DNA of 37,708 bases from Virgibacillus sp. AGTR (GTDB lineage: Bacteria; Bacillota; Bacilli; Bacillales; Amphibacillaceae). The notes below the pieces were generated by a model that did no database searches, had not been told where the DNA came from, and saw only the letters and a program-made list of their open reading frames with translations. Shown here piece by piece: positions 759 through 31,208 of the stretch (position 1 is its first letter; every line of letters begins with the position of its first letter). The stretch is taken from positions 1-37,708 of the forward strand of contig NZ_JAJERH010000041.1 of NCBI RefSeq assembly GCF_016919725.2, written 5' to 3'. The position numbers and the translations under genes are program-made.

Positions 759-858
759 CCGCATATAACTGGTCATACCCCCCACTTCAAGCAATTGAAA
801 CTAATATTGGTTAAGTGGGGGAAAACAAAACCCCAATAGATTGAAGTTTCACTTTATA
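759..858 (+). repeat. Dispersed intergenic repeat, copy 1 (internally deleted)
   Basis: This has the conserved left end CCGCATATAACTGG, a middle part with the CTAATATTGG motif, and the conserved right end GATTGAAGTTTCACTTTATA. The arms CCCCCACTT (779-787) and AAGTGGGGG (813-821) are perfectly complementary. Compared with the full copy at 31027-31208 it lacks the centre. Its last 10 bases overlap the 3' end and stop codon of the YesK-like gene. It lies between convergent genes. Confidence 0.8.
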
Positions 859-1112
859 AAGAAGCTAATGACAATTCCCATGTTAACACCAATTAGAAAA
901 GAAATGGAAAAAAGCCCTATTCCCATTCCTGTCCAGGGACCAATCGCAAATATACTAATGATGAATAATGCAAAACTGGCGAAGTTCAATAGTGTTGTAA
1001 TTATATAAAGTCCTACACGATTCATGTATCTTGCTAAAAGAATGATAATGGAAGCAGTAATTAATCCTGTTAGAATAAATGGTAACCAGCCCTCTAAAAG
1101 AATTCTGAACAT
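849..1112 (-). CDS. Small YesK-like membrane protein
   Basis: An 87-residue, very hydrophobic protein with three predicted membrane helices: about residues 7-26 (PFILTGLITASIIILLA), 33-52 (LYIITTLLNFASFALFI) and 58-82 (GMGIGLFSISFLIGVNMGIV). Size and layout resemble the YesK family of Bacillus, whose function is unknown; this assignment is by eye. ATG at 1112 was chosen because GGAGG lies 7 bases upstream, whereas longer starts have no ribosome binding site. The gene follows the VOC gene by 28 bp and is probably co-transcribed with it. Its stop codon lies inside repeat copy 1, so insertion of that repeat may have shaped the present C-terminus. Confidence 0.6.
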   Translation of the reverse strand: MFRILLEGWLPFILTGLITASIIILLARYMNRVGLYIITTLLNFASFALFIISIFAIGPWTGMGIGLFSISFLIGVNMGIVISFFIK

Positions 1113-1140
1113 ATGCAGTCCTCCGGAATTCGTTATTGGA

Positions 1141-1500
1141 TCAGCCATTGCATACCATAATAATATTTTCATCAGGATCTTTTACGGCTGTAAACGCTGT
1201 TATGGGTGATGTGATTTGATAGTTCGGTTTTTCTACAAATCGAAATGCCGCTTGAATATCATCTGTATGAAAGTTGTATAATGGGTGTGGAGACGGAGTA
1301 ACTTTTTGAACTTTTCCTCTAGGCCCGGCATCTAATATCAACCCCGTATGATGATTGATATCAAGCTTATAAACAGGTTGGTTTAGATGTTCTGCTTGAT
1401 ACTTCTGCCCTAATAAATCACAATACCATTTTACCGATCTGTGCAATTCACTAACGCTGACAAATATTGTATTAACCTGATTTTTAATGGGACTATTCAC
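1141..1500 (-). CDS. VOC (glyoxalase/bleomycin-resistance fold) protein
   Basis: A 119-residue protein with the paired beta-alpha-beta-beta-beta layout of the vicinal oxygen chelate superfamily. The first half opens with VNTIFVSVSELHRSVKWYC, and the second closes with FTAVKDPDENIIMVCNG, matching the typical end of the fold (DP-x-GN). Members include glyoxalase I, fosfomycin thiol transferases, ring-cleavage dioxygenases and antibiotic-binding proteins; nothing here selects one. It starts with GTG at 1500, eight bases after AAAGGAGTG. It is the first gene of a two-gene minus-strand unit with the YesK-like protein. Confidence 0.8.
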   Translation of the reverse strand: MNSPIKNQVNTIFVSVSELHRSVKWYCDLLGQKYQAEHLNQPVYKLDINHHTGLILDAGPRGKVQKVTPSPHPLYNFHTDDIQAAFRFVEKPNYQITSPITAFTAVKDPDENIIMVCNG

Positions 1501-1571
1501 TTCACCACACTCCTTTTACATAATAGCTTAATCTTCAAAACGTACATTTCTATCCCACACATAGCTACAGT

Positions 1572-1661
1572 AGTAAGCCCCCATCAGGCATTTAAGTCAT
1601 ACCTTTGTGATACTAACAATCAGTGGGGATAACAAAACTCCCACTGATTGAAGTTTTACTT
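1572..1661 (+). repeat. Dispersed intergenic repeat, copy 2 (right half)
   Basis: A fragment of the left module (GTAAGCCCCC) is joined to the right module. A perfect 10-bp hairpin pairs AATCAGTGGG (1618-1627) with CCCACTGATT (1640-1649) around an AACAAAA-type loop, followed by GAAGTTTTACTT. It lies in the divergent region between the VOC gene and the AraC-type gene. Confidence 0.8.
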
Positions 1662-1793
1662 GTAATAATTTTTTCTATTCTGATTTTATAAGAAAATAAT
1701 TCAATTGTCGATGAAATAATGGAAATGCTTAAAGGAATTCTTTGATTTAAATCGAATACTATTAATAGGTATTTAGGTCAGGAGGAACGTAAC

Positions 1794-2573
1794 GTGCCAA
1801 GTTATTCTTCAGAAATGGATGAAGTGCTATTTTATATAAAAAGGCATATTGATGAAGACCTATCGCTTGCTCGATTAGCACGCTATGCAGCTTACAGTCC
1901 TTATCATTTTTCCCGTATCTTCAAAGCATATGTTGGTTTGCCCCCTCATTATTACGTTGCTTCTATTCGTTTACAGAAGGCAAAGGATTTATTGTTAAAG
2001 ACAAACTTAAGTATCCGTGACATCGGTATGGAGATCGGCCAGCAAAGTCTTGGTACCTTTACAACAAGGTTTTCAAACCGGGTAGGTATGTCACCATCTG
2101 CGTTTCGTCATTCACCACAGGTAGTGAACAAGCATTTGACATCCTTGAATCAACTGGCGACATGGAAACAAACAAGCATTGTTAAAAAAGCACATAACTA
2201 TGTTACAGGAACAATTGATGCAGAAGTTCCGTTCAGTGGAGTTATTTTAATAGGATTGTTTCCGAAGCCAATTCCAGAGGGAATGCCGAAATATGGTACA
2301 CTACTGTCGACATTAGGTGAATTTTCATTTTCTAATGTGAAGCCAGGTCGTTACTATTTAATGGCAACTGCGGTAACTTGGGATTCGCAGGCAACAGATA
2401 TTTTGCTCCCACACACTACACTAAGAGCTAAAATCCATCATCCAATTGTAGTGCAACCTCGTTCATCTGTACCACACCTGTATGTAACACTTCGTGCACC
2501 ACGTTTAAATGATCCGCCTATATTAGTTTCCTTGCCCGTGCTAATGAATAATTTCCTGCGTCAGCAAGGTTAA
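1794..2573 (+). CDS. AraC-family regulator with N-terminal HTH and beta-rich C-terminal domain
   Basis: A 259-residue regulator. The double helix-turn-helix of the AraC/XylS family fills residues 6-105: LSLARLARYAAYSPYHFSRI is the first HTH, and LSIRDIGMEIGQQSLGTFTT followed by RFSNRVGMSPSAFR is the second. This is the reverse of the usual order, in which the DNA-binding domain is C-terminal. Residues about 128-259 alternate short strands and turns (VTGTIDAEVPFSGVILIGLF, GRYYLMATAV) like a transthyretin or carboxypeptidase-regulatory beta-sandwich; that is inference. It starts at GTG 1794 after AGGAGG. It is monocistronic, and the ligand and targets are unknown. Confidence 0.8.
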   Translation: MPSYSSEMDEVLFYIKRHIDEDLSLARLARYAAYSPYHFSRIFKAYVGLPPHYYVASIRLQKAKDLLLKTNLSIRDIGMEIGQQSLGTFTTRFSNRVGMSPSAFRHSPQVVNKHLTSLNQLATWKQTSIVKKAHNYVTGTIDAEVPFSGVILIGLFPKPIPEGMPKYGTLLSTLGEFSFSNVKPGRYYLMATAVTWDSQATDILLPHTTLRAKIHHPIVVQPRSSVPHLYVTLRAPRLNDPPILVSLPVLMNNFLRQQG

Positions 2574-2606
2574 AGTTCAAGATTGGAAGCTGGACTTTAT
2601 TCTTCT
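2571..2606 (+). terminator. Terminator of the AraC-type gene
   Basis: TAAAGTTCA, which contains the gene's stop codon, pairs with TGGACTTTA (2591-2599) with one G·U pair, and a TTCTTCT tract follows. Confidence 0.6.
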
Positions 2607-2659
2607 AATACAAATTATGGAAATCGATAAGTTGCTGATAAGACTAGAGTAAGAGAATG

Positions 2660-2695
2660 GTGATGAGGTTGGAACATAACTAAAGTGGTTTTTTC
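2660..2695 (+). repeat. Left end of a GAGGTTGGGACA-type element (degenerate)
   Basis: GATGAGGTTGGAACATAACT followed by an AAAGTGGTT motif matches the left end of the element at 11145-11281. No clear right end is seen. The rest of the gap 2607-2915 holds no gene that I can support. A TATAAT at about 2806-2811 could be the -10 box for the rpiR-type gene. Confidence 0.5.
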
Positions 2696-2915
2696 TGTAT
2701 CGCCTTGTTAGCTGTTAAAGTAGCAGTTGGTAGGCTCGATGTGGTATTCTTTCATTATACGAATAGGGTACATTTTCTATAGGATACTAATTCGAACGGA
2801 ACGATATAATAGTAATATTTCTATAAGCATAGACAACAATAGAAATACACCCAAAGCTGGTATACCGTTACATAACAGGATTTCCTTACTCCTATAACTA
2901 AGGAAGGAGGTTTTC

Positions 2916-3698
2916 ATGATGGATAAACCTTTATTTGATATTCCGCATCAAACCTATTCTATGCTCAGTCAAGCGGAGCGCTATTTATTGGAATTTATAC
3001 ACCAACATCTTGACGAGATAGCTACCATGTCAATTGTTACGTTAAGTGAAAGAGCAAATGTGTCTACAGCTACGATTGTCAGACTGATGAAGAAAATAGG
3101 CTATAACGGCTATACATCTTTTAAATATCGTTTAAAACAGGACAAGAAAATGGAGGACACCCATGATTGGCTTGGAAATATTGACGACGATATTAAACAG
3201 GTAATTAAGAAAAATGAGGAAGAGGTTACGAAAACCATCCAGCTACAAAGCATTGGTCAAATTGAAGATGCCGTCCAAAAAATATTTAATGCAGAACGAG
3301 TCTATATTTTTAGCCGTGGCTTTTCAGAAATGATTGCAAAAGAAATGATGGTAAAATTACAGGCTTTAGATAAAATATGTGAAACACATGAAGACCCTAA
3401 TATCATTCGTGTGAAGTCTCGTAAAGTAGGAAAAAATGATATAGCTATTTTTGTATCGTTAAATGGTGAAACACCTGAGCTTGTGGAGGCATGCCAAAAC
3501 TTAAATATGAGACAAGTAACAACGATTACACTAACTACCAAGGTTGACTCGTCACTTAGTAGATTATCTGATATGACTCTATTAGGGTATAAAACAGATC
3601 ATTCCCTTTTTCCAGAATATGAAGTTCGTTCAAGACTTTCACTTAATGTAATAGCTAGAATACTTCTTGATTCTTACGTAATCCGTACAAAAAAATAA
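2916..3698 (+). CDS. MurR/RpiR-family transcriptional regulator
   Basis: A 260-residue regulator. Residues 1-77 form the RpiR-type HTH (SIVTLSERANVSTATIVRL is the recognition region). Residues about 105-255 form a SIS sugar-phosphate-binding domain, with VYIFSRGFSEMIAKEM and DIAIFVSLNGETPELVEAC as its phosphate-binding loops. Such regulators sense phosphosugars and usually control the neighbouring sugar operon. The start at ATG 2916 follows AAGGAGG; ATG 2919 is also possible. The next gene is a PfkB sugar kinase 640 bp downstream, so this protein is the likely local regulator of the PTS operon. The 640-bp gap is occupied by repeats. Confidence 0.88.
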   Translation: MMDKPLFDIPHQTYSMLSQAERYLLEFIHQHLDEIATMSIVTLSERANVSTATIVRLMKKIGYNGYTSFKYRLKQDKKMEDTHDWLGNIDDDIKQVIKKNEEEVTKTIQLQSIGQIEDAVQKIFNAERVYIFSRGFSEMIAKEMMVKLQALDKICETHEDPNIIRVKSRKVGKNDIAIFVSLNGETPELVEACQNLNMRQVTTITLTTKVDSSLSRLSDMTLLGYKTDHSLFPEYEVRSRLSLNVIARILLDSYVIRTKK

Positions 3699-3788
3699 AT
3701 GCAGTTCTGTGATAATCCGATATTGATTATTCTTCTAAGGAGCATTCCGTTAATTATTGGGAAACATCCTTTTTTCTGAATATCGTCT

Positions 3789-3839
3789 GAGGCTAGGATA
3801 AAAAAACAATTTCTTTACTCAAAATACGAATAATCATGT
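3789..3839 (-). repeat. Fragment of a GGCTGGGACAAAA-type element, inverted
   Basis: GAGGCTAGGATAAAAAAACA and the following CTTTACTCAAAATACGAATA match the reverse complement of the right end of the element at 19816-20104 with few differences. Only this end is present. Confidence 0.65.
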
Positions 3840-3842
3840 AAT

Positions 3843-4004
3843 CCCACATATAACTGGTAGTAAGACCCCGACTTCAAGCAATAAAGACAAACCAAAATTG
3901 GTAAGTGTGGGAATGACTGCATTAAATGTCCGATTGGTTCAAGGACTTTTAGGGCATACCCTTGTGGTACTAACAATTAGTGTGGGATAGACAAAACGCC
4001 CATA
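3843..4004 (+). repeat. Dispersed intergenic repeat, copy 3 (near full length)
   Basis: The left end CCCACATATAACTGG, the middle CAAGCAATAAAG, the block AAATGTCCGATTGGTTC and the right part GTGGTACTAACAATTAG occur in the same order as in the copy at 31027-31208. TCCCACA (3842-3848) pairs with TGTGGGA (3906-3912). The right end is degenerate: it lacks the GATTGAAGTTT motif. Confidence 0.8.
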
Positions 4005-4044
4005 TTTATACACAGGCTCAAATTTTATATTTTCCTAAATCGCT

Positions 4045-4090
4045 AAAAGGCGAATGATAATTATTATCAAATAATTATCGTTCGTCTTTT
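4045..4090 (+). terminator. Long hairpin ending in GTTCGTCTTTT
   Basis: A 21-bp stem (4045-4065 with 4070-4090) contains two G·U pairs and no gap, with a 4-base loop and a terminal TTTT. It would work as a terminator downstream of the rpiR-type gene. Its arm sequence (GACGAAC-ATAATT) recurs in hairpins at 13186-13231 and 19847-19891. Confidence 0.6.
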
Positions 4091-4122
4091 ATTGCTTCTT
4101 CATTCCTTTTTTAGCTTTTTTC

Positions 4123-4170
4123 CCCGCATATAACTGCCAGTAAGACCCCTGCTGCTAAGTAGTTTCACTT
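4123..4170 (+). repeat. Dispersed intergenic repeat, copy 4 (ends only)
   Basis: The left end CCGCATATAACTGCCAGTAA is followed almost directly by CCCCTGCTG and a right-end-like AGTTTCACTT. The centre is missing. It lies 170 bp upstream of the PfkB gene. Confidence 0.6.
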
Positions 4171-4275
4171 AATATTTTCACAACGCCATAGTGGCAAGCA
4201 GCTTCATTAACGCTACTAAAATTTACTAGGTTTGTCATACCTTCGCATCCTTTCACTGCAAAGGTTTACATAAGC

Positions 4276-4289
4276 TGAAAACATTTACA
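4276..4289 (+). promoter_or_regulatory. Candidate cre-like site before the PTS operon
   Basis: TGAAAACATTTACA resembles the CcpA cre consensus (TGWAANCGNTNWCA) except that the central CG is CA. It overlaps a direct repeat of TTTACATAA (4265-4273 and 4284-4292, 19 bp apart) that could instead bind the RpiR-type regulator. Both roles are inferred. Confidence 0.35.
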
Positions 4290-4339
4290 TAAATGAATAT
4301 GAGATACTTTACTTAACAACAAAGAAAGAGGGTGAAGCT

Positions 4340-5263
4340 GTGATTTATACCTGTACAATGAACACAGCTATTGATTTATACGTAGCCATAGACAACTTGA
4401 AACCAAATAGAGTAAATCGTACGTTTGATGAAGATTATCAAGCAAATGGAAAAGGCGTCAATGTTTCTATTATGCTTCAAAAAATGGGAATAGAAAATAC
4501 AGCATTAGGATTTATCGGTGGATTTACAGGTAAATTTATTGAAGAAGAATTAACTAAGCAAGGGATTAACAGTGATTTCATCAATGTGGATGGAATAACA
4601 CGAATTAATGTGTTTGTAAATGCCGATGAGGAATATAAAATTGTCAATCAAGGTCCAGAAGTTGGGCAAAAAGATGTTGATAACTTACTACAAAAAATAA
4701 AGGCTATTCCAAAGGGAAGTATATTAATCGTTTCAGGAAGCTTACCTAGGGGAGTAGAGGAGAGTATTCTTGTAGATATAGCCAAAATCTGTGCTGAAAA
4801 TGACGTTAACCTTGTAATTGATTCAAGCTCATCTATTGTATTAGAAACTCTTCCGTATCGTCCTTATTTATTGAAGCCAAATGAAGAAGAGCTTGCTCAT
4901 TTAGTTGGAAAAGATATGCCGTTATCAGAGCAAGAAATAATCGTTTATGGTAAGGAGCTCTTATATAAGGGAGCTAAAAACGTCATTATATCTAGAGGAG
5001 GAAATGGAGCAATTTTCTTAAATGACAATCATTTAGTAAACGTTAGTTCACCAGTTGGAGAAGTAGTAAATACGGCATGCTCTGGAGACTCTTTGCTCGC
5101 CGCGTTTATTGCAAAAACAATGGAAAACGCTCCATTAGATGTAACGTTAAAATATGCAGTTGCTACTGGAGCATCTACAGCTTTTTCTAAAGGTCTTAGT
5201 GACTTATCAAATATAGCAGAACTTATGAAGCAAGTTTCCATCACTAATAATAGGGGGGATTAA
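4340..5263 (+). CDS. PfkB-family ketose-1-phosphate kinase (1-phosphofructokinase/tagatose kinase type)
   Basis: A 307-residue ribokinase-fold enzyme of the FruK/LacC group. It phosphorylates a ketose 1-phosphate or 6-phosphate to the 1,6-bisphosphate with ATP. The substrate motif GKGVNVSIML is at residues 38-47, and the second signature with its catalytic base is NTACSGDSLLAAF with Asp250. The usual anion-hole motif is GAGD, but here it reads CSGD (residues 247-250), an unusual variant. It starts at GTG 4340 after GAGGGTGA. Two bases separate it from the PTS EIIBC gene, so the two are co-translated in one operon. Fructose-1-phosphate or tagatose-1-phosphate is the likely substrate; sequence alone does not decide. 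Confidence 0.85.
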   Translation: MIYTCTMNTAIDLYVAIDNLKPNRVNRTFDEDYQANGKGVNVSIMLQKMGIENTALGFIGGFTGKFIEEELTKQGINSDFINVDGITRINVFVNADEEYKIVNQGPEVGQKDVDNLLQKIKAIPKGSILIVSGSLPRGVEESILVDIAKICAENDVNLVIDSSSSIVLETLPYRPYLLKPNEEELAHLVGKDMPLSEQEIIVYGKELLYKGAKNVIISRGGNGAIFLNDNHLVNVSSPVGEVVNTACSGDSLLAAFIAKTMENAPLDVTLKYAVATGASTAFSKGLSDLSNIAELMKQVSITNNRGD

Positions 5264-5265
5264 GT

Positions 5266-6723
5266 ATGGTTAAAAAGAAAATTGTTGCAGCTACAGGTTG
5301 TCCAACAGGTATTGCACATACATTTATGGCTGCAGAAGCGCTTAAAAAAGCTGCAGAAAAAATGGGTGTGGAGATTAAAGTGGAAACACATGGTCAGGTT
5401 GGTGTTGAAAATGCCTTATCTCCTGAGGAAATAAAGGAAGCAGATGGTGTTATTATTGCTGCAGATAAGGATGTACAGGCGTATCGATTTCATGGAAAGC
5501 CCTTAGTCGATGTACCAGTTTCGAAAGGCATTCGTTCTCCAGAAGAACTTATTAATCAAATAGTTAATCAAGAAGCTTCTACTTATTATGACTCAGATTA
5601 TCAAGAGTCAGGTAATGAGGCAGATAAAATGGAAGTCGATGAGAGGGATCAGGCTACCAAGCAAAATAGACGATGGGTTCATTCAATATATAAGCACTTA
5701 ATGAATGGCGTATCACACATGCTCCCATTTGTTGTAGGGGGTGGAGTGCTCATTGCAGTTTCCTTCCTGTTCGGTATCTATTCGGCTGACCCGGACCATG
5801 AGCAGTACAATGAATTTGCAGCATTGCTAAATCAAGTTGGTGGATTAGGTTTTAGTTTAATGGTGCCGATATTGGCAGCTTTTATTGCCGAATCCATTTC
5901 TAAAAGGCCGGGGATGGTTGTTGGCTTCATTGGTGGGCTATTGGCAGATGAAGGTGGAGCAGGATTTTTAGGCGGAATATTAGCAGGTTTTATTGCAGGT
6001 TATATCATTATTCTCCTGCAAAAACTGTTAAAAAAGATGCCGCACTCATTGAATGGATTGAAGTCCATTTTCTTGTATCCAGTTTTGGGAATCTTTCTAA
6101 TTGGTATCGTTATGACGCCAATTATCCAACCATTAACAAGTTTAAACGAAGGATTAATGGACTTCCTAGCATCCGTACAATCAACAAATCCATTACTATT
6201 AGGATTAATTGTCGGTGCAATGTGTGGATTCGATATGGGCGGACCGTTTAATAAGGCGGCATATGTTACTGGGACACTATTATTATCCGAAGGAAATCTG
6301 TATTTTATGGCAGGGGTATCAGCAGCATGTATTGCACCACCGCTAATTATTGCTTTTGCTACAGTTATTTTTCCCAAATATTTTACAAAAGAGGAACGAA
6401 ACGCTGGAGCTGTCAACTTTATATTAGGATCGACGCACATTACAGAGGGGGCTATCCCCTTTGCAGCTAAGAGCCCTTTAATTGTTCTGCCGATTATTAT
6501 GTTCGGCTCCTCCATAGCAGCGATCATGACTTACATGTTCGGCGTTCAAGTGCCAGCGCCGCATGGTGGGTTTTTAGTCCTTCCAGTTGTTACAGGAGCT
6601 TTCCAATGGGTTTTATCTATTTTAGTAGGTTCACTAATTGGTGCTTTCCTATATGGTCTATATCGAAAAAAAGCAGCACACAATAAGCCAATGAGGAGTG
6701 ATCAGTATGAAACATTTAATTAA
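5266..6723 (+). CDS. PTS fructose-family transporter, fused EIIB-EIIC
   Basis: A 485-residue membrane permease of the phosphotransferase system. Residues 1-100 are the EIIB-Fru domain with the phosphorylated Cys12 in ATGCPTGIAHTF. A polar linker (about 100-138, rich in Asp and Glu) joins it to EIIC, which has about nine hydrophobic segments between 150 and 475 and the family motif GFDMGGPFNKAAY. The protein imports and phosphorylates a ketose, with the phosphate coming from the separate EIIA encoded next. ATG 5266 follows AGGGGGG. FruA-type fructose transporters and tagatose-type relatives share this layout, so the sugar is not certain. Confidence 0.9.
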   Translation: MVKKKIVAATGCPTGIAHTFMAAEALKKAAEKMGVEIKVETHGQVGVENALSPEEIKEADGVIIAADKDVQAYRFHGKPLVDVPVSKGIRSPEELINQIVNQEASTYYDSDYQESGNEADKMEVDERDQATKQNRRWVHSIYKHLMNGVSHMLPFVVGGGVLIAVSFLFGIYSADPDHEQYNEFAALLNQVGGLGFSLMVPILAAFIAESISKRPGMVVGFIGGLLADEGGAGFLGGILAGFIAGYIIILLQKLLKKMPHSLNGLKSIFLYPVLGIFLIGIVMTPIIQPLTSLNEGLMDFLASVQSTNPLLLGLIVGAMCGFDMGGPFNKAAYVTGTLLLSEGNLYFMAGVSAACIAPPLIIAFATVIFPKYFTKEERNAGAVNFILGSTHITEGAIPFAAKSPLIVLPIIMFGSSIAAIMTYMFGVQVPAPHGGFLVLPVVTGAFQWVLSILVGSLIGAFLYGLYRKKAAHNKPMRSDQYETFN

Positions 6724-7171: not shown

Positions 7172-7172
7172 A

Positions 7173-9203: not shown

Positions 9204-9251
9204 CCACATTTAACTGGCAGTAATATCCCTGCTGATTGAAGTTTTACTTTA
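9204..9251 (+). repeat. Dispersed intergenic repeat, copy 5 (ends only)
   Basis: The left end CCACATTTAACTGGCAGTAA is joined to the right end CTGATTGAAGTTTTACTTTA with the whole centre missing. Its last bases supply the TAA stop of the antiporter gene on the minus strand, as copy 1 does for the YesK-like gene. Confidence 0.75.
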
Positions 9252-10721
9252 TGCTTCCGTTTTGACAGGCTTTTTCTTTTCTTTTTGACCCAATAATACC
9301 TTCTTTGATTTTTCTCTATTTTTCTTATTACTCAATACGTATAAGATGTCATTCTCTAAAATAACGGAATTACCAGTAGGAGTAATAACCTGTTTATCAC
9401 GGATAATACCGATAATTAATGTCTCGTCAGGAAGTTCTATATCTATTAATGATGTATTAACTGCCGGAGATTGAGAGAATATCCTGACTTCCATGATCTC
9501 CGCTTCTGTATTTCCTAGATTAATGAGTTCCATTGAAGGTTTAGTAGGATCATTTTTATAGCCGGTTAATTTTAATTTTGTAGCTAGCCATGATAATGTG
9601 CTTCCTTGAACCAAAGCTGAAATTAATACAACGAAAAATACCGCATTAAAAATTAAGTCACTGTTATCTACTTCAGCAATGATCGGATAAGTGGCTAAAA
9701 CGATAGGAACAGCTCCTTTTAGCCCAGCCCATGAAATAAACAATTTTTCTTTAACATTATATTTCATGAATACCATGGAAATAAATACGGCAATCGGTCT
9801 CGCGATAAACATTAAAATGATGGAGAGAATAATACCTTGCCAAAAGACTTCCGTAAGTTGACTTGGAAAAACAAGTAGTCCGAGGAGGATAAACATGACA
9901 ATTTGCATCATCCATGCAAATCCTTCGTTGAATCGTAAGATAGAGAAACGATACATTAAATCACTATTACCAACAAATACAGCCATTACATAAACAGCTA
10001 ATAAGCCACTTCCGCCTAAAAAGTCCGCTAGAAAGTATGTAGCTGTAGCCATACCAATAGCTAATGTTGGATATAGGCCGGCAGTATCAAGCTTAATATT
10101 ATTGATAAGCATCACGGTTAGCTTACCGAGTAATAGTCCGATTAATAAGCCAAGTCCCATTTGTATAAAGAAGCTACCAATCGTACTCCAAATGGATGTT
10201 TCGGGTATTTGAATGAGCTCAATAAAGGAAACAGTAAGGAATACCGCCATGGGATCGTTGGAACCGGATTCTGCTTCAAGTGTAGATGTCAATTTCGTAT
10301 TGATATTTTTATTACCAAGAACGGAAAAAACAGCAGCTGCATCTGTAGAACCAACAATGGCCCCGAATAACATTCCTTCAAGTAAAGATAGATCAAGAAT
10401 ATACATAGCAGCAAAGCCTGTTAATATGGTGGTTAATAAGACTCCTAATGTAGCTAACGAGCCTGCTGCTCCAAGGACAGGCCGAACCTGTTCCCACTTT
10501 GTTTGTGTCCCACCCTCAAATAAAATAATGATTAAAGCCATAATTCCGATTAGTTGGGTAAGCTCTACATTTTCAAAGAAAACAAATTTGTTAAGGCCCA
10601 TACCAATTAAGAGGAACAACACGAGGGCTGGTAAGCCCAATCGAGTGGAGAATTTGGTTGCTAATACTCCGACAATGAGCATCGCAGAAAAGAGAAAGAT
10701 GAGCATTTCTAAAGATAACAT
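9249..10721 (-). CDS. CPA1 cation/proton antiporter with C-terminal TrkA-C (RCK_C) domain
   Basis: A 490-residue membrane protein of the NhaP2/CvrA group, which exchanges K+ or Na+ for H+. About 12 hydrophobic segments fill residues 1-385, with the ion-binding region FEGGTQTKW and the motif AIVGSTDAAAVFSVL followed by AESGSNDPMAVFLT. Residues about 395-465 form a TrkA-C regulatory domain (EIMEVRIFSQSPAVNTSLID), followed by a lysine-rich tail. ATG at 10721 follows GGAAGG at about 10 bases; the TTG at 10739 overlaps that site and is less likely. It is a single gene. K+/H+ exchange under salt or alkaline stress would fit, but the ion is not determined. Confidence 0.87.
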   Translation of the reverse strand: MLSLEMLIFLFSAMLIVGVLATKFSTRLGLPALVLFLLIGMGLNKFVFFENVELTQLIGIMALIIILFEGGTQTKWEQVRPVLGAAGSLATLGVLLTTILTGFAAMYILDLSLLEGMLFGAIVGSTDAAAVFSVLGNKNINTKLTSTLEAESGSNDPMAVFLTVSFIELIQIPETSIWSTIGSFFIQMGLGLLIGLLLGKLTVMLINNIKLDTAGLYPTLAIGMATATYFLADFLGGSGLLAVYVMAVFVGNSDLMYRFSILRFNEGFAWMMQIVMFILLGLLVFPSQLTEVFWQGIILSIILMFIARPIAVFISMVFMKYNVKEKLFISWAGLKGAVPIVLATYPIIAEVDNSDLIFNAVFFVVLISALVQGSTLSWLATKLKLTGYKNDPTKPSMELINLGNTEAEIMEVRIFSQSPAVNTSLIDIELPDETLIIGIIRDKQVITPTGNSVILENDILYVLSNKKNREKSKKVLLGQKEKKKPVKTEA

Positions 10722-13134: not shown

Positions 13135-13185
13135 TGAAGTAACATGAGCTTATAAGGCTATAAAAAAGATTGAGAGATAATTGAT

Positions 13186-13231
13186 AAAAGACGAACAATA
13201 ATTAATTTAGGTTAATTATTGTTCGTCTTTT
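13186..13231 (+). terminator. Terminator of the chemotaxis receptor gene
   Basis: A perfect 20-bp stem (13186-13205 with 13212-13231) has a 6-base loop and ends in TTTT. Its arms contain AAGACGAACAATAATTAA, closely related to the hairpin at 4045-4090. Confidence 0.8.
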
Positions 13232-13244: not shown

Positions 13245-13321
13245 GTTACTCTTGCGGTACTCATAGTAACAGTCAGTAGGGGATAAACAAACCCCCCAAC
13301 CGATTGAGCTTTCACTTTATA
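13245..13321 (+). repeat. Dispersed intergenic repeat, copy 6 (right half)
   Basis: TTACTCTTGCGGTACTCATA, then GTCAGTAGGGG, a loop with AAACAAA, and GATTGAGCTTTCACTTTATA. This corresponds to the right module of copy 9 with more substitutions. It lies between the convergent receptor and pstB genes. Confidence 0.7.
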
Positions 13322-15091: not shown

Positions 15092-15093
15092 GA

Positions 15094-19815: not shown

Positions 19816-20104
19816 GAGACTGAGACAAAAAAATGAAGAAACAATTAAAAACGAGCGATGATTAGTTGAAATTAATTATCGTTCATTTTTTGATTAGAAT
19901 AATTATTTTAGCACCAGAAATAAGCGAAACTCCGGTGGAAACAGCACGAGTCCAAAGATCCACATGGTAACGTGTTTTTCTTTACCAAGTTAGCTGAGGC
20001 CGTGCGTGGAAAGTGCGTATAGTTTCACAGTGCGGCGATGATACTAGCCATTGATAACATGATCATTCGTATTTTGAGTAAAGAAGTTGTGTTTTGTCCC
20101 AGCC
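19816..20104 (+). repeat. Element with inverted ends GAGACTGAGACAAAA / TTTTGTCCCAGCC
   Basis: A 289-bp segment whose ends are imperfect inverted repeats of the GAGGYTGGGACAAAA type. It has a long inner hairpin at 19847-19891 related to those at 4045 and 13186. Its right end recurs inverted at 3789-3839. It contains no open reading frame of note. Size and inverted ends suggest a MITE-like element. Confidence 0.6.
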
Positions 20105-23172: not shown

Positions 23173-23275
23173 CCACATATAACTGGAAATAACACCACCT
23201 CTTCTAGGAATAAAGAGAAACCAATATTGGTAAATAGGGGATAAACACCCTCCCACTTATTGAAGTTTCACTTAT
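23173..23275 (+). repeat. Dispersed intergenic repeat, copy 7 (internally deleted)
   Basis: The left end CCACATATAACTGG, then AATAAAGAGAAACCAATATT and GGTAAATAGGGG, an ATAAACA loop, and the right end CACTTATTGAAGTTTCACTT. The arrangement resembles copy 1. Confidence 0.75.
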
Positions 23276-24508: not shown

Positions 24509-24536
24509 ATGTGACGTTGACTGTCCAGTGAATAAT

Positions 24537-24575
24537 AAAACCGAGGCAATTCAGAGTGATCAGCCTCGGTTTTTA
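24537..24575. terminator. Bidirectional terminator
   Basis: AAAACCGAGGC pairs with GCCTCGGTTTT, and the flanking A and T runs suit both converging genes. Confidence 0.85.
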
Positions 24576-24579
24576 CGTA

Positions 24580-25641: not shown

Positions 25642-25816
25642 GCCACAAAACCCCATCTCTGAAAGTAATATCTGTATACTTATATTCTAGCGAAGATATA
25701 AAGCGATGTCACCATTTGATTGATTTCGACAAGCAATGGATCCGTTATCAACTACACTGTGTTGACTGAGGATGTAAAATTTATGCTTATACCATATATT
25801 TCAACATATGCTTGTA

Positions 25817-25825
25817 TGCTATACT
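25817..25825 (+). promoter_or_regulatory. Extended -10 promoter of the thioesterase gene
   Basis: TGCTATACT is an extended -10 element, 22 bp before the start codon. No good -35 box is seen. Confidence 0.45.
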
Positions 25826-25847
25826 AGTCAAAAAAGGAGGGGACAAC

Positions 25848-26330
25848 ATGTCTATAGATGCAATACAAGATATTTACCCAGAGGACTATGCTTGGTGCTA
25901 CGGCTGTGGAAGGCTGAATAAAGAAGGACTTCATTTTAAAACCATTTGGCAAGGTGATAAAACGATTACGGTGTATACACCTAGGCCAGAACATACAGCT
26001 ATTCCTGGATTTGTATATGGAGGATTAATTGGATCTTTAATTGATTGCCACGGAACAGGCTCAGCGTCAATGGCTTTACATCGTAAAAATGGCCATGAAA
26101 TTGGAGATGGGACAGAGCCACCCCGTTTTGTTACCGCATCTTTACATGTAGACTTTATGAAACCGACACCTCATGGTATACCTCTGAAGGCTATTGGAAC
26201 TGTTGAAGAAATACATCCAAAGAAATTCAAAATACGCACGGAAGTGTTTGCTCATAACGACTGCTGTGCAAAGGGAGAAGTGATAGCTGCGGTAATGCCA
26301 GCAGCGTTTAAACAAAAATCAGAAGTTTAA
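25848..26330 (+). CDS. Hotdog-fold thioesterase (PaaI/YiiD-like)
   Basis: A 160-residue cytosolic protein. The stretch FVYGGLIGSLIDCHGTGSAS is the hotdog central helix with the usual acidic residue (Asp), and RFVTASLHVDFMKPTPHGIP is the second conserved strand pair, as in acyl-CoA thioesterases. An N-terminal segment CYGCGRLNKEGLHF holds two cysteines (CxxC), common in this branch. ATG 25848 follows AAGGAGGGG; an earlier in-frame ATG at 25812 lacks such a site. It is a single gene directly followed by repeat copy 8. The substrate acyl-CoA is unknown. Confidence 0.85.
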   Translation: MSIDAIQDIYPEDYAWCYGCGRLNKEGLHFKTIWQGDKTITVYTPRPEHTAIPGFVYGGLIGSLIDCHGTGSASMALHRKNGHEIGDGTEPPRFVTASLHVDFMKPTPHGIPLKAIGTVEEIHPKKFKIRTEVFAHNDCCAKGEVIAAVMPAAFKQKSEV

Positions 26331-26378
26331 CCTGTACATAACCAGTAAGATACCCACTGATTGAAGTTTCACTTTGTA
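26331..26378 (+). repeat. Dispersed intergenic repeat, copy 8 (right end)
   Basis: ACATAACCAGTAAGA joined to CCCACTGATTGAAGTTTCAC. Only remnants of both ends remain. It begins at the base after the thioesterase stop codon. Confidence 0.65.
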
Positions 26379-26428
26379 GATTAATGTGTTGTAATATGTA
26401 TAAGGATTGAGTCAAAAAGGGTGTGCGT

Positions 26429-26902
26429 ATGGGATATCCATTTTATAATGAAGCCATTTGGAAAAGAAAAGCTCGAAATGCATATTTCAGTTCACTAGCC
26501 GTTATGGTTATTTTATGGTTACAAATTAGTGAGAATGATTTTTATCATCCTGCATTCGTTGTAATAAGTAGTATATTTGCTTTTTTTTCGCTTGTTCAAG
26601 GGATCCATTACCAAACCATGTGGAAAAAGGATTACATTCGTATGGAGGATAATGAGATTTTAATTTATCGCGGATTATGTTTACCAAGGAAACGGATTTC
26701 CTTCGAAGATATAAAGAGATTCAAAGAAGTAAGTACTTTGATTGAGCTACACTTAAAGGAAGATAAGCATGCACAGTTTAATATAGATTGGCTTTCTAAT
26801 CATTCGGTCAAAGCTATAAAGGAAACACTTTGTAAAAAAATCCACGAGGAAATGGATGAAGTAAGGAAAAAGGAGCATTATCATGCAAAGACTCACTACT
26901 AG
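26429..26902 (+). CDS. Two-helix membrane protein with PH-like cytoplasmic domain
   Basis: A 157-residue protein of unknown function. Two membrane helices lie at about 17-35 (YFSSLAVMVILWLQ) and 42-62 (AFVVISSIFAFFSLVQGI). Then comes a domain with strands DYIRMEDNEILIYRGLCLPRK, ISFEDIKRFKEV and LIELHLKE and a final charged helix, which resembles the bacterial PH-like (YcxB/DUF-type) domains; this is by pattern only. ATG 26429 follows AAAGGG. It overlaps the LytTR gene by 20 bp, so the two are translationally coupled and the protein may act as membrane partner or anti-activator of that regulator. Confidence 0.65.
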   Translation: MGYPFYNEAIWKRKARNAYFSSLAVMVILWLQISENDFYHPAFVVISSIFAFFSLVQGIHYQTMWKKDYIRMEDNEILIYRGLCLPRKRISFEDIKRFKEVSTLIELHLKEDKHAQFNIDWLSNHSVKAIKETLCKKIHEEMDEVRKKEHYHAKTHY

Positions 26903-27527
26903 ATCATTATTAGATGTAATTGGTGAACTTTTTTCCGATGAGATATCTATTGCCGTAACAACGACATCGGAATATATCTACTATCGCCCAAGTATACGAA
27001 TTGATTTAAAAATTAGACCTGGAGATTCAATTAAGGAAGAAACACTTGCTAGCAAGGCTCTGGTAATGGAGCAGAAAGTGTCTGAATTCATACCCCGAAA
27101 TGTATTTGGGATCCCGTATCATGGTATGGCAGTTCCCTTTTATGATGGAGCTCATTTAGGAGGATGTGTGCTTGCTATTTATCCAGCATTAACGGAGGGG
27201 AAATCAGTTATTACCGTAAAGACTTCAGACGGTTGGAAACCAATTCCTTTTGAGAAAGTCCAATATATCGAAGTGAAGGACAGGAGGACAAATGTTATTT
27301 CTCAAGAATTGAATGGTGTACATCGGCTTACGTTGCAGGATTTTGAATATATGCTACCAAGAGAATCGTTCATTCGTTGTCATCGATCATTTATAGTTAA
27401 TGTGAATCAAATTGAGCATATTTATCCAGATACGCATTCGACATTTATGCTAGCTATGAGAAATGGAGACCAAATACCTGTTAGCCAATCCTATTCCAGT
27501 TATTTTCGGAAGCTATTAGGATTTTGA
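26883..27527 (+). CDS. LytTR-family transcriptional regulator with N-terminal sensory domain
   Basis: A 214-residue DNA-binding protein. Residues about 115-212 are a LytTR domain: ITVKTSDGWKPIPFEKVQYI, then LQDFEYMLPRESFIRCHRSF and VNVNQIEHIYP are the standard blocks. Residues 1-110 form a small alpha/beta domain with a PAS- or cache-like feel (FGIPYHGMAVPFYDGAHLGG), not a phospho-acceptor receiver, so it is not a classical response regulator. ATG 26883 follows AAAAGGAG. Its coupling to a membrane protein matches known LytTR regulatory systems in which a membrane protein inhibits the regulator. Targets could include its own operon and the Cid/Lrg genes (inference). Confidence 0.8.
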   Translation: MQRLTTRSLLDVIGELFSDEISIAVTTTSEYIYYRPSIRIDLKIRPGDSIKEETLASKALVMEQKVSEFIPRNVFGIPYHGMAVPFYDGAHLGGCVLAIYPALTEGKSVITVKTSDGWKPIPFEKVQYIEVKDRRTNVISQELNGVHRLTLQDFEYMLPRESFIRCHRSFIVNVNQIEHIYPDTHSTFMLAMRNGDQIPVSQSYSSYFRKLLGF

Positions 27528-27603
27528 ATACAAATACTGTTTTAAAAGTATCTGGTACTGGTCTAAGCAATATACTTCTATTCCAGACATATTTCCACAA
27601 AAA

Positions 27604-27617
27604 AGAAAGCGCTTCAT
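27604..27617 (+). promoter_or_regulatory. cre site (CcpA) upstream of the CoA-transferase gene
   Basis: AGAAAGCGCTTCAT contains the core GAAAGCGCTT of the CcpA cre consensus. It lies 44 bp before the start codon, which would allow glucose repression. Binding is inferred. Confidence 0.65.
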
Positions 27618-27660
27618 ATAGAATAGTCCTTAAACTCTAATAAGAAAGAAGGGGTTTGGG

Positions 27661-29175
27661 ATGAGATGTGAACATGATAGAATAGAGGATGTTCGACTGC
27701 ATGATCGCGTTGTAACTGCAGAAGAAGCAGCATCGTGGATAAAGGATGGAATGACACTTGGATTAAGCGGCTTTACCCGGGCAGGGGATGTAAAAGCTGT
27801 ACCAACAGCGTTAGTAAAGCGAGTCGAAAATGGGGAGCGCCTAAAGGTGAATGTTTTTACAGGTGCTTCTTTGGGGTCAGACGTTGATAAGATGTTTGCG
27901 GAAGCAGGCTTGGTTAATAAACGCTTACCTTTTCAAGCAGATCCATTCATGCGGAGGAAAATAAATCAAGGAGAGCATCTATTCGTTGACCATCATCTTT
28001 CGCATACCGCTGAATTACTACGGGGAAATGTAATAGAAAAAGTTGATTATGCTATTTTGGAAGCGATTTCCATCACGGCTGAAGGGTTAATTATACCAAC
28101 TACTTCAATTGGTAACTCCCTTTCATTTGCAGAGAGCGCAAAGGCAGTTATTATTGAGATCAATTTAGCTCAATCTCTATTGTTAAAAGGGCTGCATGAC
28201 CTATACAGCCCGGATAAGCAAGGAAAGCGCAAACCTATTCCTTTAACTGAGGTACATGATCGAATTGGTACAATCGGTATTCCGATTGATGTGGAGAAAG
28301 TTAAAGGAATCGTTTTTACAAACCAAACGGATTCTCCCTCTACGATTGTACAGCCAGATAAAGAAACAAAGGTTATGGCCGATCATTTGCTGCACTTTTT
28401 TCGTGAGGAGGTTGCGGCAGGGAGATTAACTAAAAACCTTGCTCCACTTCAATCTGGTATTGGCTCAGTTGCAAATGCTGTTTTACATGGAATGGTTAAT
28501 TCAGAATTTGAAAATCTAGAGATTTACTCGGAAGTATTACAGGACGCTGTATTTGATTTAATGGATGCAAATAAGGTGCGGATGGCATCTTGCTGTTCGA
28601 TTACGCTTTCTGAGGCTAGAATGCAAGAGGTCTTTAACAACTTCGAGCGATATCGAAATAAATTAATTATGCGTCCACAGGAAATATCCAATCATCCAGA
28701 AATTATTCGTAGACTTGGACTTTTATCCATTAACACAGCGTTAGAATTTGATATCTATGGGAATGTCAATTCAACTCATGTGGCGGGCACGAAGATGATG
28801 AATGGGATAGGGGGATCTGGTGATTTTGCCCGAAATGCTAGGGTCGCCATCTTTGTTACAAAATCTATTGCTAAGAATGGTACTATTTCAAGTGTTGTAC
28901 CCTTTGCTTCGCATATCGATCATACAGAGCATGATGTAGATATATTAGTTACGGAGCAAGGCTATGCAGATTTACGAGGGCTTGCTCCAAGGGAAAGAGC
29001 TCCACTGATTATTGAAAATTGTGCACATCCTATGTATCGTAAGCAATTATGGAATTACTATAAGGAAGCAATTAAAGGTGGTGGGCAGACACCTCATAAT
29101 TTGGAAAAGGCAATGAGCTGGCATGTTAGTTACACGAAACAGGGGACAATGCAGGAACTAATTGGGCAGGATTAG
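27661..29175 (+). CDS. Acetyl-CoA hydrolase / succinyl-CoA:acetate CoA-transferase family
   Basis: A 504-residue class I CoA-transferase of the Cat1/AarC/Ach1 group, moving CoA between succinyl-CoA or acetyl-CoA and an acid, or hydrolysing acetyl-CoA. Visible features are the N-terminal GMTLGLSGFTRAGDVKAVP, the active-site region LEIYSEVLQDAVFDLMD with its conserved Glu, FDIYGNVNSTHVAGTKMMNG and the glycine loop GGSGDFARNA. ATG 27661 follows AGAAGGGG. A cre site upstream suggests repression by glucose. A terminator follows. Location is cytosol. It could serve acetate use or overflow metabolism. Confidence 0.88.
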   Translation: MRCEHDRIEDVRLHDRVVTAEEAASWIKDGMTLGLSGFTRAGDVKAVPTALVKRVENGERLKVNVFTGASLGSDVDKMFAEAGLVNKRLPFQADPFMRRKINQGEHLFVDHHLSHTAELLRGNVIEKVDYAILEAISITAEGLIIPTTSIGNSLSFAESAKAVIIEINLAQSLLLKGLHDLYSPDKQGKRKPIPLTEVHDRIGTIGIPIDVEKVKGIVFTNQTDSPSTIVQPDKETKVMADHLLHFFREEVAAGRLTKNLAPLQSGIGSVANAVLHGMVNSEFENLEIYSEVLQDAVFDLMDANKVRMASCCSITLSEARMQEVFNNFERYRNKLIMRPQEISNHPEIIRRLGLLSINTALEFDIYGNVNSTHVAGTKMMNGIGGSGDFARNARVAIFVTKSIAKNGTISSVVPFASHIDHTEHDVDILVTEQGYADLRGLAPRERAPLIIENCAHPMYRKQLWNYYKEAIKGGGQTPHNLEKAMSWHVSYTKQGTMQELIGQD

Positions 29176-29218
29176 TTTCTAGATGGTTCGATTAGATAAA
29201 GGGGATCTATATAATGAG

Positions 29219-29255
29219 GAAGCTACATTTCTGTAAAAAGAGATGTAGCTTTTTC
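29219..29255 (+). terminator. Terminator of the CoA-transferase gene
   Basis: GAAGCTACAT pairs with ATGTAGCTTT around a 14-base loop, followed by a T run. Confidence 0.85.
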
Positions 29256-29604
29256 ATAGTCTAGGAAATGATTAAATTAGTCCATATGGTTAAATAGGGT
29301 ATGAGCCGCGTTTAGCGCAAGCACACCGTGATTCCTTTATCACCGTTGACTCGCTTCATTCGCTATGTTTCTAATCGGACGCTTGCGCTTTTGTTAGGAA
29401 GAAGCTGATTGCTACCTTCTGCGGACGGTGCCTGTGAGACCCCTCGTGGCTTCACTCTTGTGAAGTCACACCCGCACACACTTTTAAGGCAGGAGTCGTC
29501 GACTTTCGTTTCCAACTATGGAAGGGTTATGAAACATGCAGGGTAGGTTCACCTTACATGCAACCGACGGCAAAAATCCCATAATTTCAGGTTTGTTTTT
29601 TTAA

Positions 29605-29702
29605 AAGTTAAGAAAGTATAAAATCAGTGCAATGACTGCGTTAAGCCAAGTAGTTATTTTGAAATGTTTGATGTATATTGGCAATGCTCCGACTAATTAC
29701 TT
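29605..29702 (+). repeat. 98-bp direct repeat, first copy
   Basis: This is identical to 37611-37708 except for one base (29647 C, 37653 G). It begins AAGTTAAGAAAGTATAAAAT and ends CGACTAATTACTT. Homology probably continues beyond the window on the right. Confidence 0.9.
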
Positions 29703-29804
29703 CGCTTTCCGCGGGCACGGCTTCAACTAACTTTGCAAAGAAGAACACGTTGCAAAGTGGATTTTCGGCTCGCGCTAATCCCGCAGGAGTCTACGTAATT
29801 AGTC
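29691..29804. repeat. Inverted repeat GACTAATTAC / GTAATTAGTC
   Basis: The perfect 10-bp arms at 29691-29700 and 29795-29804 enclose a GC-rich centre with a second inner pairing, GCGGG (29711-29715)/CCCGC (29780-29784). The left arm is the end of the 98-bp repeat, so the repeat unit probably extends to about 29804. Confidence 0.7.
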
Positions 29805-30260
29805 TCCGCTATGAGAAGATGCAACAATTCTTGTCATAAGAAATAGGTTGACTTTTTTTACAATGGGTAAAGTGAAAATCGCTATCCGTGAGTATAAAAG
29901 CAGCTGTGTTACTTCATGCTAGCGTTGTAGAGCCTGATAATAGCGAAGGCCGGCCACTTCAACTCCTGTGGGAAATGTTTGACCTGAAGATCCACTTTTT
30001 TGAGCGGGTTTTGCTAAAAAAGTTAGCTGAAGGACAAACCCCACGGAAAGGGAAGTGGGCAGCCGGAGTGGTGGTCAAGCAGTAGCTATTATTCCATAAT
30101 AGCTACTAGAGGAAGCGTAAACCTGAGCATTTAGTGATAAGGACTGAGCGAATTTTGCTAGTTGGCTATTGTACGTCATTCATCTATCTATTTTTCATGA
30201 AGGATGTAACAAAGCTGTTTTACAATGTTTACAATATGGTTAGGAGGAGGTGCTGAGTTG

Positions 30261-30782
30261 ATGAGTAATGAATGGAAAGCAACATTTGGGTCGTGGGTAC
30301 AAGCGATTGGAACAACCTTATCAGCAATAGGCTCAACCCCCTCTATAAATATACCAGCTCCCTTGGCGAAGGAACTGAATTTAGTTGGAAATGTAATGCA
30401 AGCAACTGGAAATTCTTTAGTGGCAGATAGTATTGATCACTTTACACTTAATAAACTAGGCAATGAGATTCAAGCAATTGGTAACTCAACAGTTATTACT
30501 GGAATTGTTATTGATTTTAATGAAAAAATAAAGAATGATTTAAATATCAAAGGTAATTTACTTCAAGCTTTAGGTGGTGGAGTAGCACTAGCGGACGCTC
30601 TAGGACATGAGCCAAATGAAAATGAACTTAGTAATATTTATGGTAATTTACTTCAAGCTATCGGTAATTCGCTACAAGCTCTATCGGGAAGAACTGGCGA
30701 TGACGCGCAAGAAGTAAATGCTATTGGAAGTTGGATTCAAGCAATCGGGTCGGTGATTTCGGCATTAGGGCAGACCAAATAG
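30261..30782 (+). CDS. Repetitive QA(I/L)G protein (DUF6944-like)
   Basis: A 173-residue protein built from about six degenerate units with the core G-(N/S)-x-(I/L/V)-Q-A-(I/L/T)-G. The core glutamines are at residues 14, 47, 71, 102, 132 and 160, spaced 24-33 apart. Examples are GSWVQAIGTTLSAIG, GNLLQALGGG, GNLLQAIGNSLQAL and GSWIQAIGSVISALG. There is no signal peptide or long membrane helix. The 18-bp stretch encoding GNLLQA occurs identically at 30552 and 30642, a sign of recent internal duplication. ATG 30261 follows GGAGGAGGTG. It resembles repetitive Bacillaceae proteins annotated as DUF6944; function unknown. Amphipathic helices that pack or touch membranes are my guess. Confidence 0.75.
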   Translation: MSNEWKATFGSWVQAIGTTLSAIGSTPSINIPAPLAKELNLVGNVMQATGNSLVADSIDHFTLNKLGNEIQAIGNSTVITGIVIDFNEKIKNDLNIKGNLLQALGGGVALADALGHEPNENELSNIYGNLLQAIGNSLQALSGRTGDDAQEVNAIGSWIQAIGSVISALGQTK

Positions 30783-31026
30783 CGAAAACAAGATTGACAT
30801 CTTCCCAACATAAACAAGGGGTATAATAGAATAGGAAATTTTGAGTATCAGTGCTACGCCGAGACAAAGCAGAGAATTCACAGATCAGGTTTAGTCATTT
30901 GGAAATTGATATTCCATCAAGTGAATCTATCGGTAGAAATAATTTGTTAACTCCTAAAGGTTTATTAGTGCATCATTCATGGATGATGTGCTTGTTGAGA
31001 TAATCGCAGCGCCATAAGCGACATAT

Positions 31027-31208
31027 CTCCCGCATTTAACTGGCAGTAAGCCCCTCACATCAAGCAATAAAGCGAAACTAATATGGGTAAATGGAGGATC
31101 AACTGCCAGTAAATGTCCGATTGGTTCTAGGCCTTTAGGTCATATCATTGTGGTACTACCAATCCGTGGGGAAAACAAAACCCCCGCGGATTGAAGTTTT
31201 ACTTTATA
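31027..31208 (+). repeat. Dispersed intergenic repeat, copy 9 (full length, reference)
   Basis: This is the most complete copy, about 182 bp. From left: CCCGCATTTAACTGGCAGTA, CAAGCAATAAAG, CTAATATGGG, AACTGCCAGTAAATGTCCGA, TTGGTTCTAGG, TTGTGGTACTACCAATCCG, a GGGG-AAAACAAAA-CCCC hairpin and GATTGAAGTTTTACTTTATA. ACTGGCAGT (31039-31047) is complementary to ACTGCCAGT (31102-31110). AATCCGTGGGG (31161-31171) pairs with CCCCGCGGATT (31182-31192). It fills the gap before the HAD gene; the rest of the gap (30783-31026) shows nothing I can name. Confidence 0.85.

What the first reader, a model, noticed from the sequence alone, without database searches (positions are those of the whole stretch)
759..31208. 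Nine-copy dispersed intergenic repeat, all copies in one orientation
Nine segments (759-858, 1572-1661, 3843-4004, 4123-4170, 9204-9251, 13245-13321, 23173-23275, 26331-26378, 31027-31208) share a left end of the CC(G/A)CATWTAACTGG type and a right end GATTGAAGTTTYACTTTATA. The full unit is about 182 bp; others have lost the centre or one half. All nine point the same way, although the flanking genes face both ways. No transposase is nearby. Orientation bias with no link to gene direction is known for single-strand transposons of the IS200/IS605 type, which follow the lagging strand, so a non-autonomous relative is one hypothesis. A structured regulatory RNA is another.
Basis: partly seen in the sequence, partly recalled or inferred. 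Interest (0 to 1): 0.75.

Follow-up and report, generated by a model that had tools for sequence, protein, structure and literature searches.

The report
Fork-oriented mobile repeat of Bacilli
A short stretch of non-coding DNA, present in many copies between genes of related bacteria, sits just after the letters TTTAT and in three of the five genomes tested mostly points the way the DNA is copied, as a DNA parasite that jumps as a single strand would; no enzyme that moves it was found.

Summary
In detail: the nine segments are copies of one repeat, all on the + strand. The unit is 150-180 bp, non-coding, with a covarying hairpin near each end. It lies 3' of TTTAT and ends in TTTAT; left-flank variants are not mirrored at the right end (0 of 41, or 0 of 51 and 1 of 76 with looser filters), and one empty site holds a single TTTAT. 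In G005, a complete genome of the same genus, 241 of 283 matches point with the replication fork, whatever the neighbouring genes do and against TTTAT supply. The own genome (66 of 72) and G204 (85 of 92) agree; G114 and Lentibacillus sp. CBA3610 show no significant bias. Relatives occur in 55 of 199 genomes of the order and 35 of 348 of the class. No Y1 or TnpB gene examined shares these ends. Best reading: a non-autonomous element moved as single-stranded DNA, IS200/IS605-like, enzyme unknown. bcr1 shares the TTTAT motif; homology was not testable.

The parts
31029..31207 (+). Full-length copy (179 bp), reference for the family
31039..31110 (+). Left-end hairpin, outer arms ACTGGCAGT / ACTGCCAGT
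   Evidence: Sequence; covariation of this helix in 47 copies
31160..31193 (+). Right-end hairpin CAATCCGTGGGG / CCCCGCGGATTG
   Evidence: covariation
31037..31039 (+). TAA at the left hairpin foot, inferred left guide
   Evidence: TAA in 44 of 47 aligned copies; its role is inferred
31156..31159 (+). CTAC (family consensus CTAA) 5' of the right hairpin foot, inferred right guide
   Evidence: CTAAC in 36 of 47 copies; its role is inferred
31203..31207 (+). Terminal TTTAT of the element
   Evidence: 139 of 149 copies that reach the profile end, 141 of 176 with a looser filter
759..857 (+). Copy lacking the centre (left match 759-822, right match 814-857)
1586..1661 (+). Right half only
3843..4002 (+). 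Copy lacking the right tip
4123..4170 (+). Left-end remnant (scored part 4123-4154)
   Evidence: 14.2 bits
9204..9252 (+). About 50-bp derivative: left tip joined to right tip
   Evidence: 9.9 and 8.1 bits
13247..13320 (+). Right half
23173..23273 (+). Left half plus a short right remnant
26331..26378 (+). About 50-bp derivative (scored part 26348-26375)
   Evidence: 11.8 bits

Best explanation
The repeat is a non-autonomous mobile element that moves as single-stranded DNA. SHOWN: it starts right after TTTAT, ends in its own TTTAT, has a conserved hairpin a few bases inside each end, and one site is filled in one genome and empty, with a single TTTAT, in a relative; in three of five genomes its top strand lies mostly on the lagging-strand template. 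INFERRED: an enzyme supplied in trans (most likely a Y1/HUH transposase) recognises the two hairpins while the lagging-strand template is single-stranded. It cuts after TTTAT at both ends, guided by the TAA at each hairpin foot, and rejoins the element 3' of another exposed TTTAT. Head-to-tail arrays arise because the element's own last TTTAT is a target. In the window's genome the full-length copies are old (81-87% like the reference) and the enzyme is probably gone.
For: Orientation: 241 of 283 with the fork in G005, switching where GC skew changes sign; 0 of 20000 stretch flips reach this; own genome 66 of 72 matches; G204 85 of 92 with a fitted split, null at most 71 in 1000 shuffles on the same grid. 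Not due to genes: 27 of 29 with the fork where both neighbours run against it. Not due to target supply: intergenic TTTAT 2303 with against 2576 opposite to the fork. Target: left TTTAT in 108 of 149; left variants mirrored at the right in 0 of 41, 0 of 51 and 1 of 76 under three filters. Empty site. Hairpins: 91.0% of cells paired and 94 double changes, against at most 46.8% and 27 in slid controls. Guides: TAA at 44 of 47 left feet, CTAAC at 36 of 47 right feet. Rules of IS200/IS605: passages of PMC6006769 and PMC5371812.
Against: No enzyme was found. All seven Y1 matches of the own genome are partial or carry stops, and G004 and G021 have copies but no Y1 match. The Y1 loci examined lack copies on both sides. 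TnpB genes lie 2.6 kb or more (G114, 13 genes) and 1.4 kb or more (G204, 12 genes) from the nearest listed right end (the lists were cut at 100 places). G114, with the most alike copies, is 49 of 85 with the fork if the terminus lies where GC skew changes (p 0.19), 57 of 85 at the most favourable terminus tried. CBA3610 is 37 of 60 at best, p 0.09. The number of pairs with double changes (13) is not above one slid control (13). The linker between the hairpins is conserved class-wide, which hints at a further function. Other IS families are also said to show replication-linked orientation (PMC5371812, passage).
Confidence: 0.63

Rival explanations
1. A MITE moved by an ordinary double-strand transposase that duplicates TTTAT; its orientation comes from coupling of that transposase to the replication clamp.
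For: TTTAT stands at both ends. bcr1 is listed as a MITE (PMC3733652, passage). Clamp-linked orientation of other IS families is stated in PMC5371812 (passage). A fixed TTTAT target would make most duplications indistinguishable.
Against: The ends are not inverted repeats. Left variants are not copied at the right end: 0 of 41, 0 of 51, 1 of 76. Two internal hairpins covary.
Confidence: 0.14
2. A structured RNA (regulator, or a guide RNA like that of TnpB) spread in many copies and kept for its RNA function.
For: Strong covarying hairpins and a class-wide conserved linker. TTTAT next to the left end would be a possible TAM.
Against: Orientation is independent of neighbouring genes. No Rfam family at gathering scores in the window and none convincing in three distant copies. 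No tnpB next to a listed right end in G114 or G204.
Confidence: 0.1
3. A mobile or once mobile repeat whose orientation is mainly kept by selection (a useful polar chromosome signal, or purging of copies that face the fork), not set at insertion.
For: The bias is strong in G005 and G204 but not significant in G114, whose copies are most alike, nor in CBA3610. Density is even from origin to terminus.
Against: In G005 the more degraded matches are less, not more, biased (111 of 138 against 130 of 145). CBA3610 lives with near-equal orientations.
Confidence: 0.1

Closest known systems
IS200/IS605 family (IS608, ISDra2) and non-autonomous derivatives with only its ends
   Same: Subterminal hairpins at both ends, a short target flanking the left end, a similar sequence ending the right end, lagging-strand orientation (description of the family from passages of PMC6006769 and PMC5371812).
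   Different: No gene; no enzyme found with these ends; the left hairpin is much longer (72 nt in the window copy) than the 20-25 nt given for the family; the linker is conserved; the orientation rule is not seen in two of five genomes.
bcr1-bcr3 (group A repeats of the Bacillus cereus group)
   Same: 100-400 bp range, intergenic, mobile, TTTAT motif, MITE-like (passages of PMC6542083 and PMC3446304).
   Different: bcr1 was described as specific to the B. cereus group (title of a reference seen). No bcr1 sequence was available, so homology is untested. A replication bias of bcr1 was not mentioned in the passages seen.
REP/REPIN sequences with RAYT (TnpA_REP) transposases
   Same: Many intergenic copies, a hairpin with a short guide at its foot, presumed mobilisation by a Y1 enzyme (PMC6006769, passages).
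   Different: REPs are given as 21-65 nt, with GT[AG]G feet, isolated or in inverted pairs; this unit is 150-180 bp with TAA at its feet, and its tandem copies run head to tail.
Bhal-1 and other stem-loop families of Bacillus genomes
   Same: Repeated stem-loop DNA in related bacteria (table in PMC2267715, passage).
   Different: Only name, size (74 bp) and copy number were seen; no sequence was compared.

Membership tests
IS200/IS605 | Hairpin near each end | tested here: met
   Two helices of 9 and 12 pairs covary; the structure was drawn from the same alignment
IS200/IS605 | Insertion 3' of a fixed short target, no target duplication | tested here: met
   108 of 149 left TTTAT; variants mirrored in 0 of 41, 0 of 51, 1 of 76; one empty site. 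A duplication of an unvarying TTTAT cannot be told apart
IS200/IS605 | Guide 5' of each hairpin foot that can pair with the cleavage site | tested here: inconclusive
   TAA at 44 of 47 left feet and CTAAC at 36 of 47 right feet, complementary to TTA of TTTAT; real pairing not tested
IS200/IS605 | Orientation follows the lagging-strand template | tested here: inconclusive
   Met in G005, G204 and the own genome; not significant in G114 and CBA3610
IS200/IS605 | Carries, or is linked to, a Y1 transposase gene with the same ends | tested here: not met
   only part of the genomes' Y1 loci were read
IS200/IS605 | Single-stranded circular intermediate | not testable with these tools
   Needs an experiment
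bcr1 group A | TTTAT motif at the ends | tested here: met
   motif named in PMC6542083
bcr1 group A | Sequence homology to bcr1 | not tested
   One bcr1 paper looked for was not held; four accession lookups found no plasmid record
REP/RAYT | GTAG-type foot and size of 21-65 nt | tested here: not met
   TAA feet, 150-180 bp
REP/RAYT | Copies flank the tnpA_REP gene | tested here: not met
MITE of a double-strand transposon | Terminal inverted repeats and mirrored target duplication | tested here: not met

The most novel reading that the evidence does not exclude
One ancient, class-wide lineage of gene-less DNA parasites of Bacilli, which includes bcr1, moves as single-stranded DNA at the replication fork with an enzyme that is not a known IS200/IS605 or RAYT transposase; its conserved linker is recognised by that enzyme or acts as an RNA.
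Probability: 0.2. Interest if true: 0.85.

Novelty: new variant of a known kind. Interest (0 to 1): 0.6.

Why it matters
[quoted passage not shown] This family offers a testable alternative, single-strand transposition. In some genomes it is also a natural record of replication direction: in 18 of 21 stretches of the draft genome the majority orientation agrees with GC skew. About 670 matches would be expected in G005 by extrapolation from 283 in 2.0 of 4.76 Mb, so the repeat matters for assembly, annotation and genome rearrangement. The contrast between genomes with and without the bias would let one ask whether insertion or selection sets it. If the enzyme is not a Y1 transposase, a new mover of single-stranded DNA is waiting to be found.

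Tried and rejected
Autonomous copy: left and right ends 150-4000 nt apart gave eight candidates; the seven examined enclose ordinary-looking frames or no long frame, and L085 (196 nt) was not examined. IS ends: the Y1 elements compared in pairs start and end differently, except an IS200-type element whose left flank reads TTTAT in four copies, a lead only, its right end unclear. RAYT-like Y1 proteins of about 170-350 aa occur in many but not all copy-bearing genomes and, in the eight loci looked at, lack flanking copies. TnpB next to the right end: none among 13 genes of G114 and 12 of G204, against cut lists of right ends. Group II intron: ends do not fit (end rule recalled, no call). Plasmids: no hit with the window copy, one to three records with other copies; phages: none. 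Viral contigs: 1 and 10 pattern matches, profile support in 2 of 11 loci. A terminus desert suggested by the cut list was an artefact: one search finds copies there. Papers: nine searches that ran listed no paper on this repeat outside the B. cereus group, judged from titles and abstract starts, in the held library only.
Full report
OBSERVATION. The nine segments are real copies of one repeat. A profile made from copies outside the window finds all nine on the + strand, the weakest at 8.1 bits against a best score of 6.0 bits in 20 shuffles. The full copy is 31029-31207. The window lies in a draft genome of 4.7 Mb in 215 contigs. The genus is most likely Virgibacillus: G006, given as same genus, has a contig of 893,986 bases, the length of a V. 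proomii N4 contig that also holds the repeat. This is an inference from contig length. Twenty window frames scanned against NCBIfam look like ordinary chromosomal genes (pfkB, fructose PTS, pst transport, argG/argH and others).

ANATOMY. In 20 stretches of the own genome, chosen because most hold listed matches, plus the window, 72 matches were found. Copies begin TTTA|T-CCCGCATATAACTGGCAGTAAG and end GATTGAAGTTTCACTTTAT, and head-to-tail copies share the TTTAT at their junction. In an alignment of 47 copies from many genomes (47 of the 62 listed; one left out was over-long, the rest were dropped to shorten the set), a left and a right hairpin are supported: 91.0% of cells pair and there are 94 double changes, against at most 46.8% and 27 when partners are slid. 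The count of pairs with any double change, 13, equals one slid control. The left helix came from RNAalifold on this alignment and the right one was placed by eye on it, which favours them. Outside Virgibacillus many copies are about 150 bp and lack a middle block. TAA stands at the left hairpin foot in 44 of 47 and CTAAC before the right hairpin in 36 of 47. Both can pair with TTA of TTTAT; that they act as guides is inference from the IS200/IS605 rule described in PMC6006769 (passages).

INSERTION SITE. Of 149 copies of G000 and G005 that reach both profile ends, 108 have TTTAT on the left and 139 end in TTTAT; of 41 with another left 5-mer none shows it at the right end. Because that filter favours copies with a typical right end, I repeated it with looser filters: 0 of 51 and 1 of 76 left variants are mirrored, with right TTTAT in 141 of 176 and 159 of 209. 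So the lack of mirroring holds, while the stronger conservation of the right end is partly due to the filter. Bases right of the element show no strong preference. In G114, 15 of 15 copies seen in full follow TTTAT; their mean pairwise identity is 90% with one odd copy included. Of two neighbouring G114 copies searched in four relatives, one has an empty counterpart in G221: TTTAT and then the right flank, with the element missing. A G075 match (L232) stops at the site and does not reach across it.

ORIENTATION. G005, a complete genome of the same genus (4,761,851 bp), was sampled every 48 kb (100 stretches, 2.0 Mb). It holds 283 matches, of which 241 point with the fork; among 145 with at least 100 bits, 130 do. 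The switch lies where GC skew changes sign, near 1.9 Mb. Genes are with the fork in 1090 of 1549 cases. Matches point with the fork in 27 of 29 cases where both neighbours run against it, 108 of 129 where both run with it, and 42 of 50 and 39 of 48 in the mixed cases; 7 of 283 lie inside a frame of 100 aa or more and 20 lacked a neighbour on one side in the stretch. Flipping whole stretches at random never reaches 241 (0 of 20000). Intergenic TTTAT is slightly rarer on the favoured strand (2303 against 2576), so target supply does not explain the bias; density is even from origin to terminus. In the own genome 66 of 72 matches and 18 of 21 stretches agree with the sign of local GC skew. In G204, 85 of the 92 listed places with at most one mismatch fit one two-arm split; refitting after shuffling on the same grid reached at most 71 in 1000 trials. 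The arms there were fitted to the data; three stretches in the arm carrying + copies have positive skew.

RESULTS AGAINST. In G114, whose copies are most alike, skew in the 12 stretches held changes sign between 1.947 and 1.996 Mb; with the terminus there only 49 of 85 exact matches are with the fork (p 0.19). Earlier termini give 51 to 57 of 85, the best p being 0.002. Of 15 one-mismatch places that happened to be listed, 12 are with the fork. Lentibacillus sp. CBA3610, the one named complete genome tested, gives 37 of 60 at best (p 0.09), with the origin assumed at base 1. Either the bias differs between genomes, or rearrangements and an unknown terminus blur it, or selection sharpens it. 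I cannot tell which.

DISTRIBUTION. The covariance model finds relatives at E <= 1e-4 in 55 of 199 genomes of the order, in 27 families, and in 35 of 348 genomes drawn from the class (a set that overlaps the first), 26 of them outside the order in six families. Only the best 13 or 7 candidates per genome were scored, so misses are not proof of absence. Exact matches to one left-end pattern name Lentibacillus, Virgibacillus, Ornithinibacillus and Oceanobacillus, and a Pseudalkalibacillus plasmid has two copies. Eight distant stretches from six genomes show that most of the unit, linker included, is conserved.

ENZYME. Y1_Tnp matches were found in 19 of 22 and 21 of 25 genomes. In the own genome the seven matches are partial or carry stops; G004 and G021 have copies of the repeat and no Y1 match. 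Among loci L028-L052, 4 of 25 hold any trace of the repeat and none has it on both sides. Five RAYT-like regions have none. No element with a transposase gene between these ends was found in the DNA held. The nearest listed right end is 2.6 to 30 kb from 13 TnpB genes of G114 (a fourteenth, on another contig, could not be compared) and 1.4 to 109 kb from 12 of G204. The mover is thus lost, acts in trans from an element with other ends, or is of another kind.

WHAT IT IS. The features fit a non-autonomous element moved as single-stranded DNA: it works like an IS200/IS605 derivative. Membership is not claimed, since the link to a Y1 gene was tested and not met. Rfam has no match at gathering scores in the window; weak matches of three distant copies at E up to 5 were far below their families' cut-offs. 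The closest described repeats are bcr1-bcr3 of the B. cereus group, said to be mobile with TTTAT motifs (PMC6542083, passage); no bcr1 sequence was at hand. Papers were seen as passages (PMC6542083, PMC2267715, PMC3446304, PMC6006769, PMC3733652, PMC5371812) or as search listings only.

Noticed in passing
window 4038-4090, 13179-13231, 19839-19891: A second, palindromic 53-nt repeat; two of its three copies lie beside copies of the main repeat.
   Followed up: no
window 29605-29702 and 37611-37708: 98-nt direct repeat, 99% identical, the second at the very end of the contig; perhaps why the assembly broke there.
   Followed up: no
window 9204-9252 and 26331-26378: About 50-bp derivatives that look like deletions between the CCCCCAC-like stretches of the left and right hairpins.
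   Followed up: partly
L214 3404-3617 (G114): A copy with a longer, different middle that seems to hold further inverted repeats.
   Followed up: no
L240 3990-4071 (CP079755, labelled Klebsiella grimontii plasmid pNY3A): A copy of this Bacilli repeat on a plasmid filed under Klebsiella: transfer, or a wrong label.
   Followed up: partly
L035, L039, L040, L049: IS200-type element of Virgibacillus and kin with TTTAT at its left flank in four copies; a lead for the missing enzyme.
   Followed up: partly
L259 12710-13138: Three head-to-tail copies in a contig held as viral.
   Followed up: partly
G067, G101, G159, G229 and others: RAYT-like Y1 proteins of about 170-350 aa are common in these Bacilli; their own repeats were not identified.
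   Followed up: no
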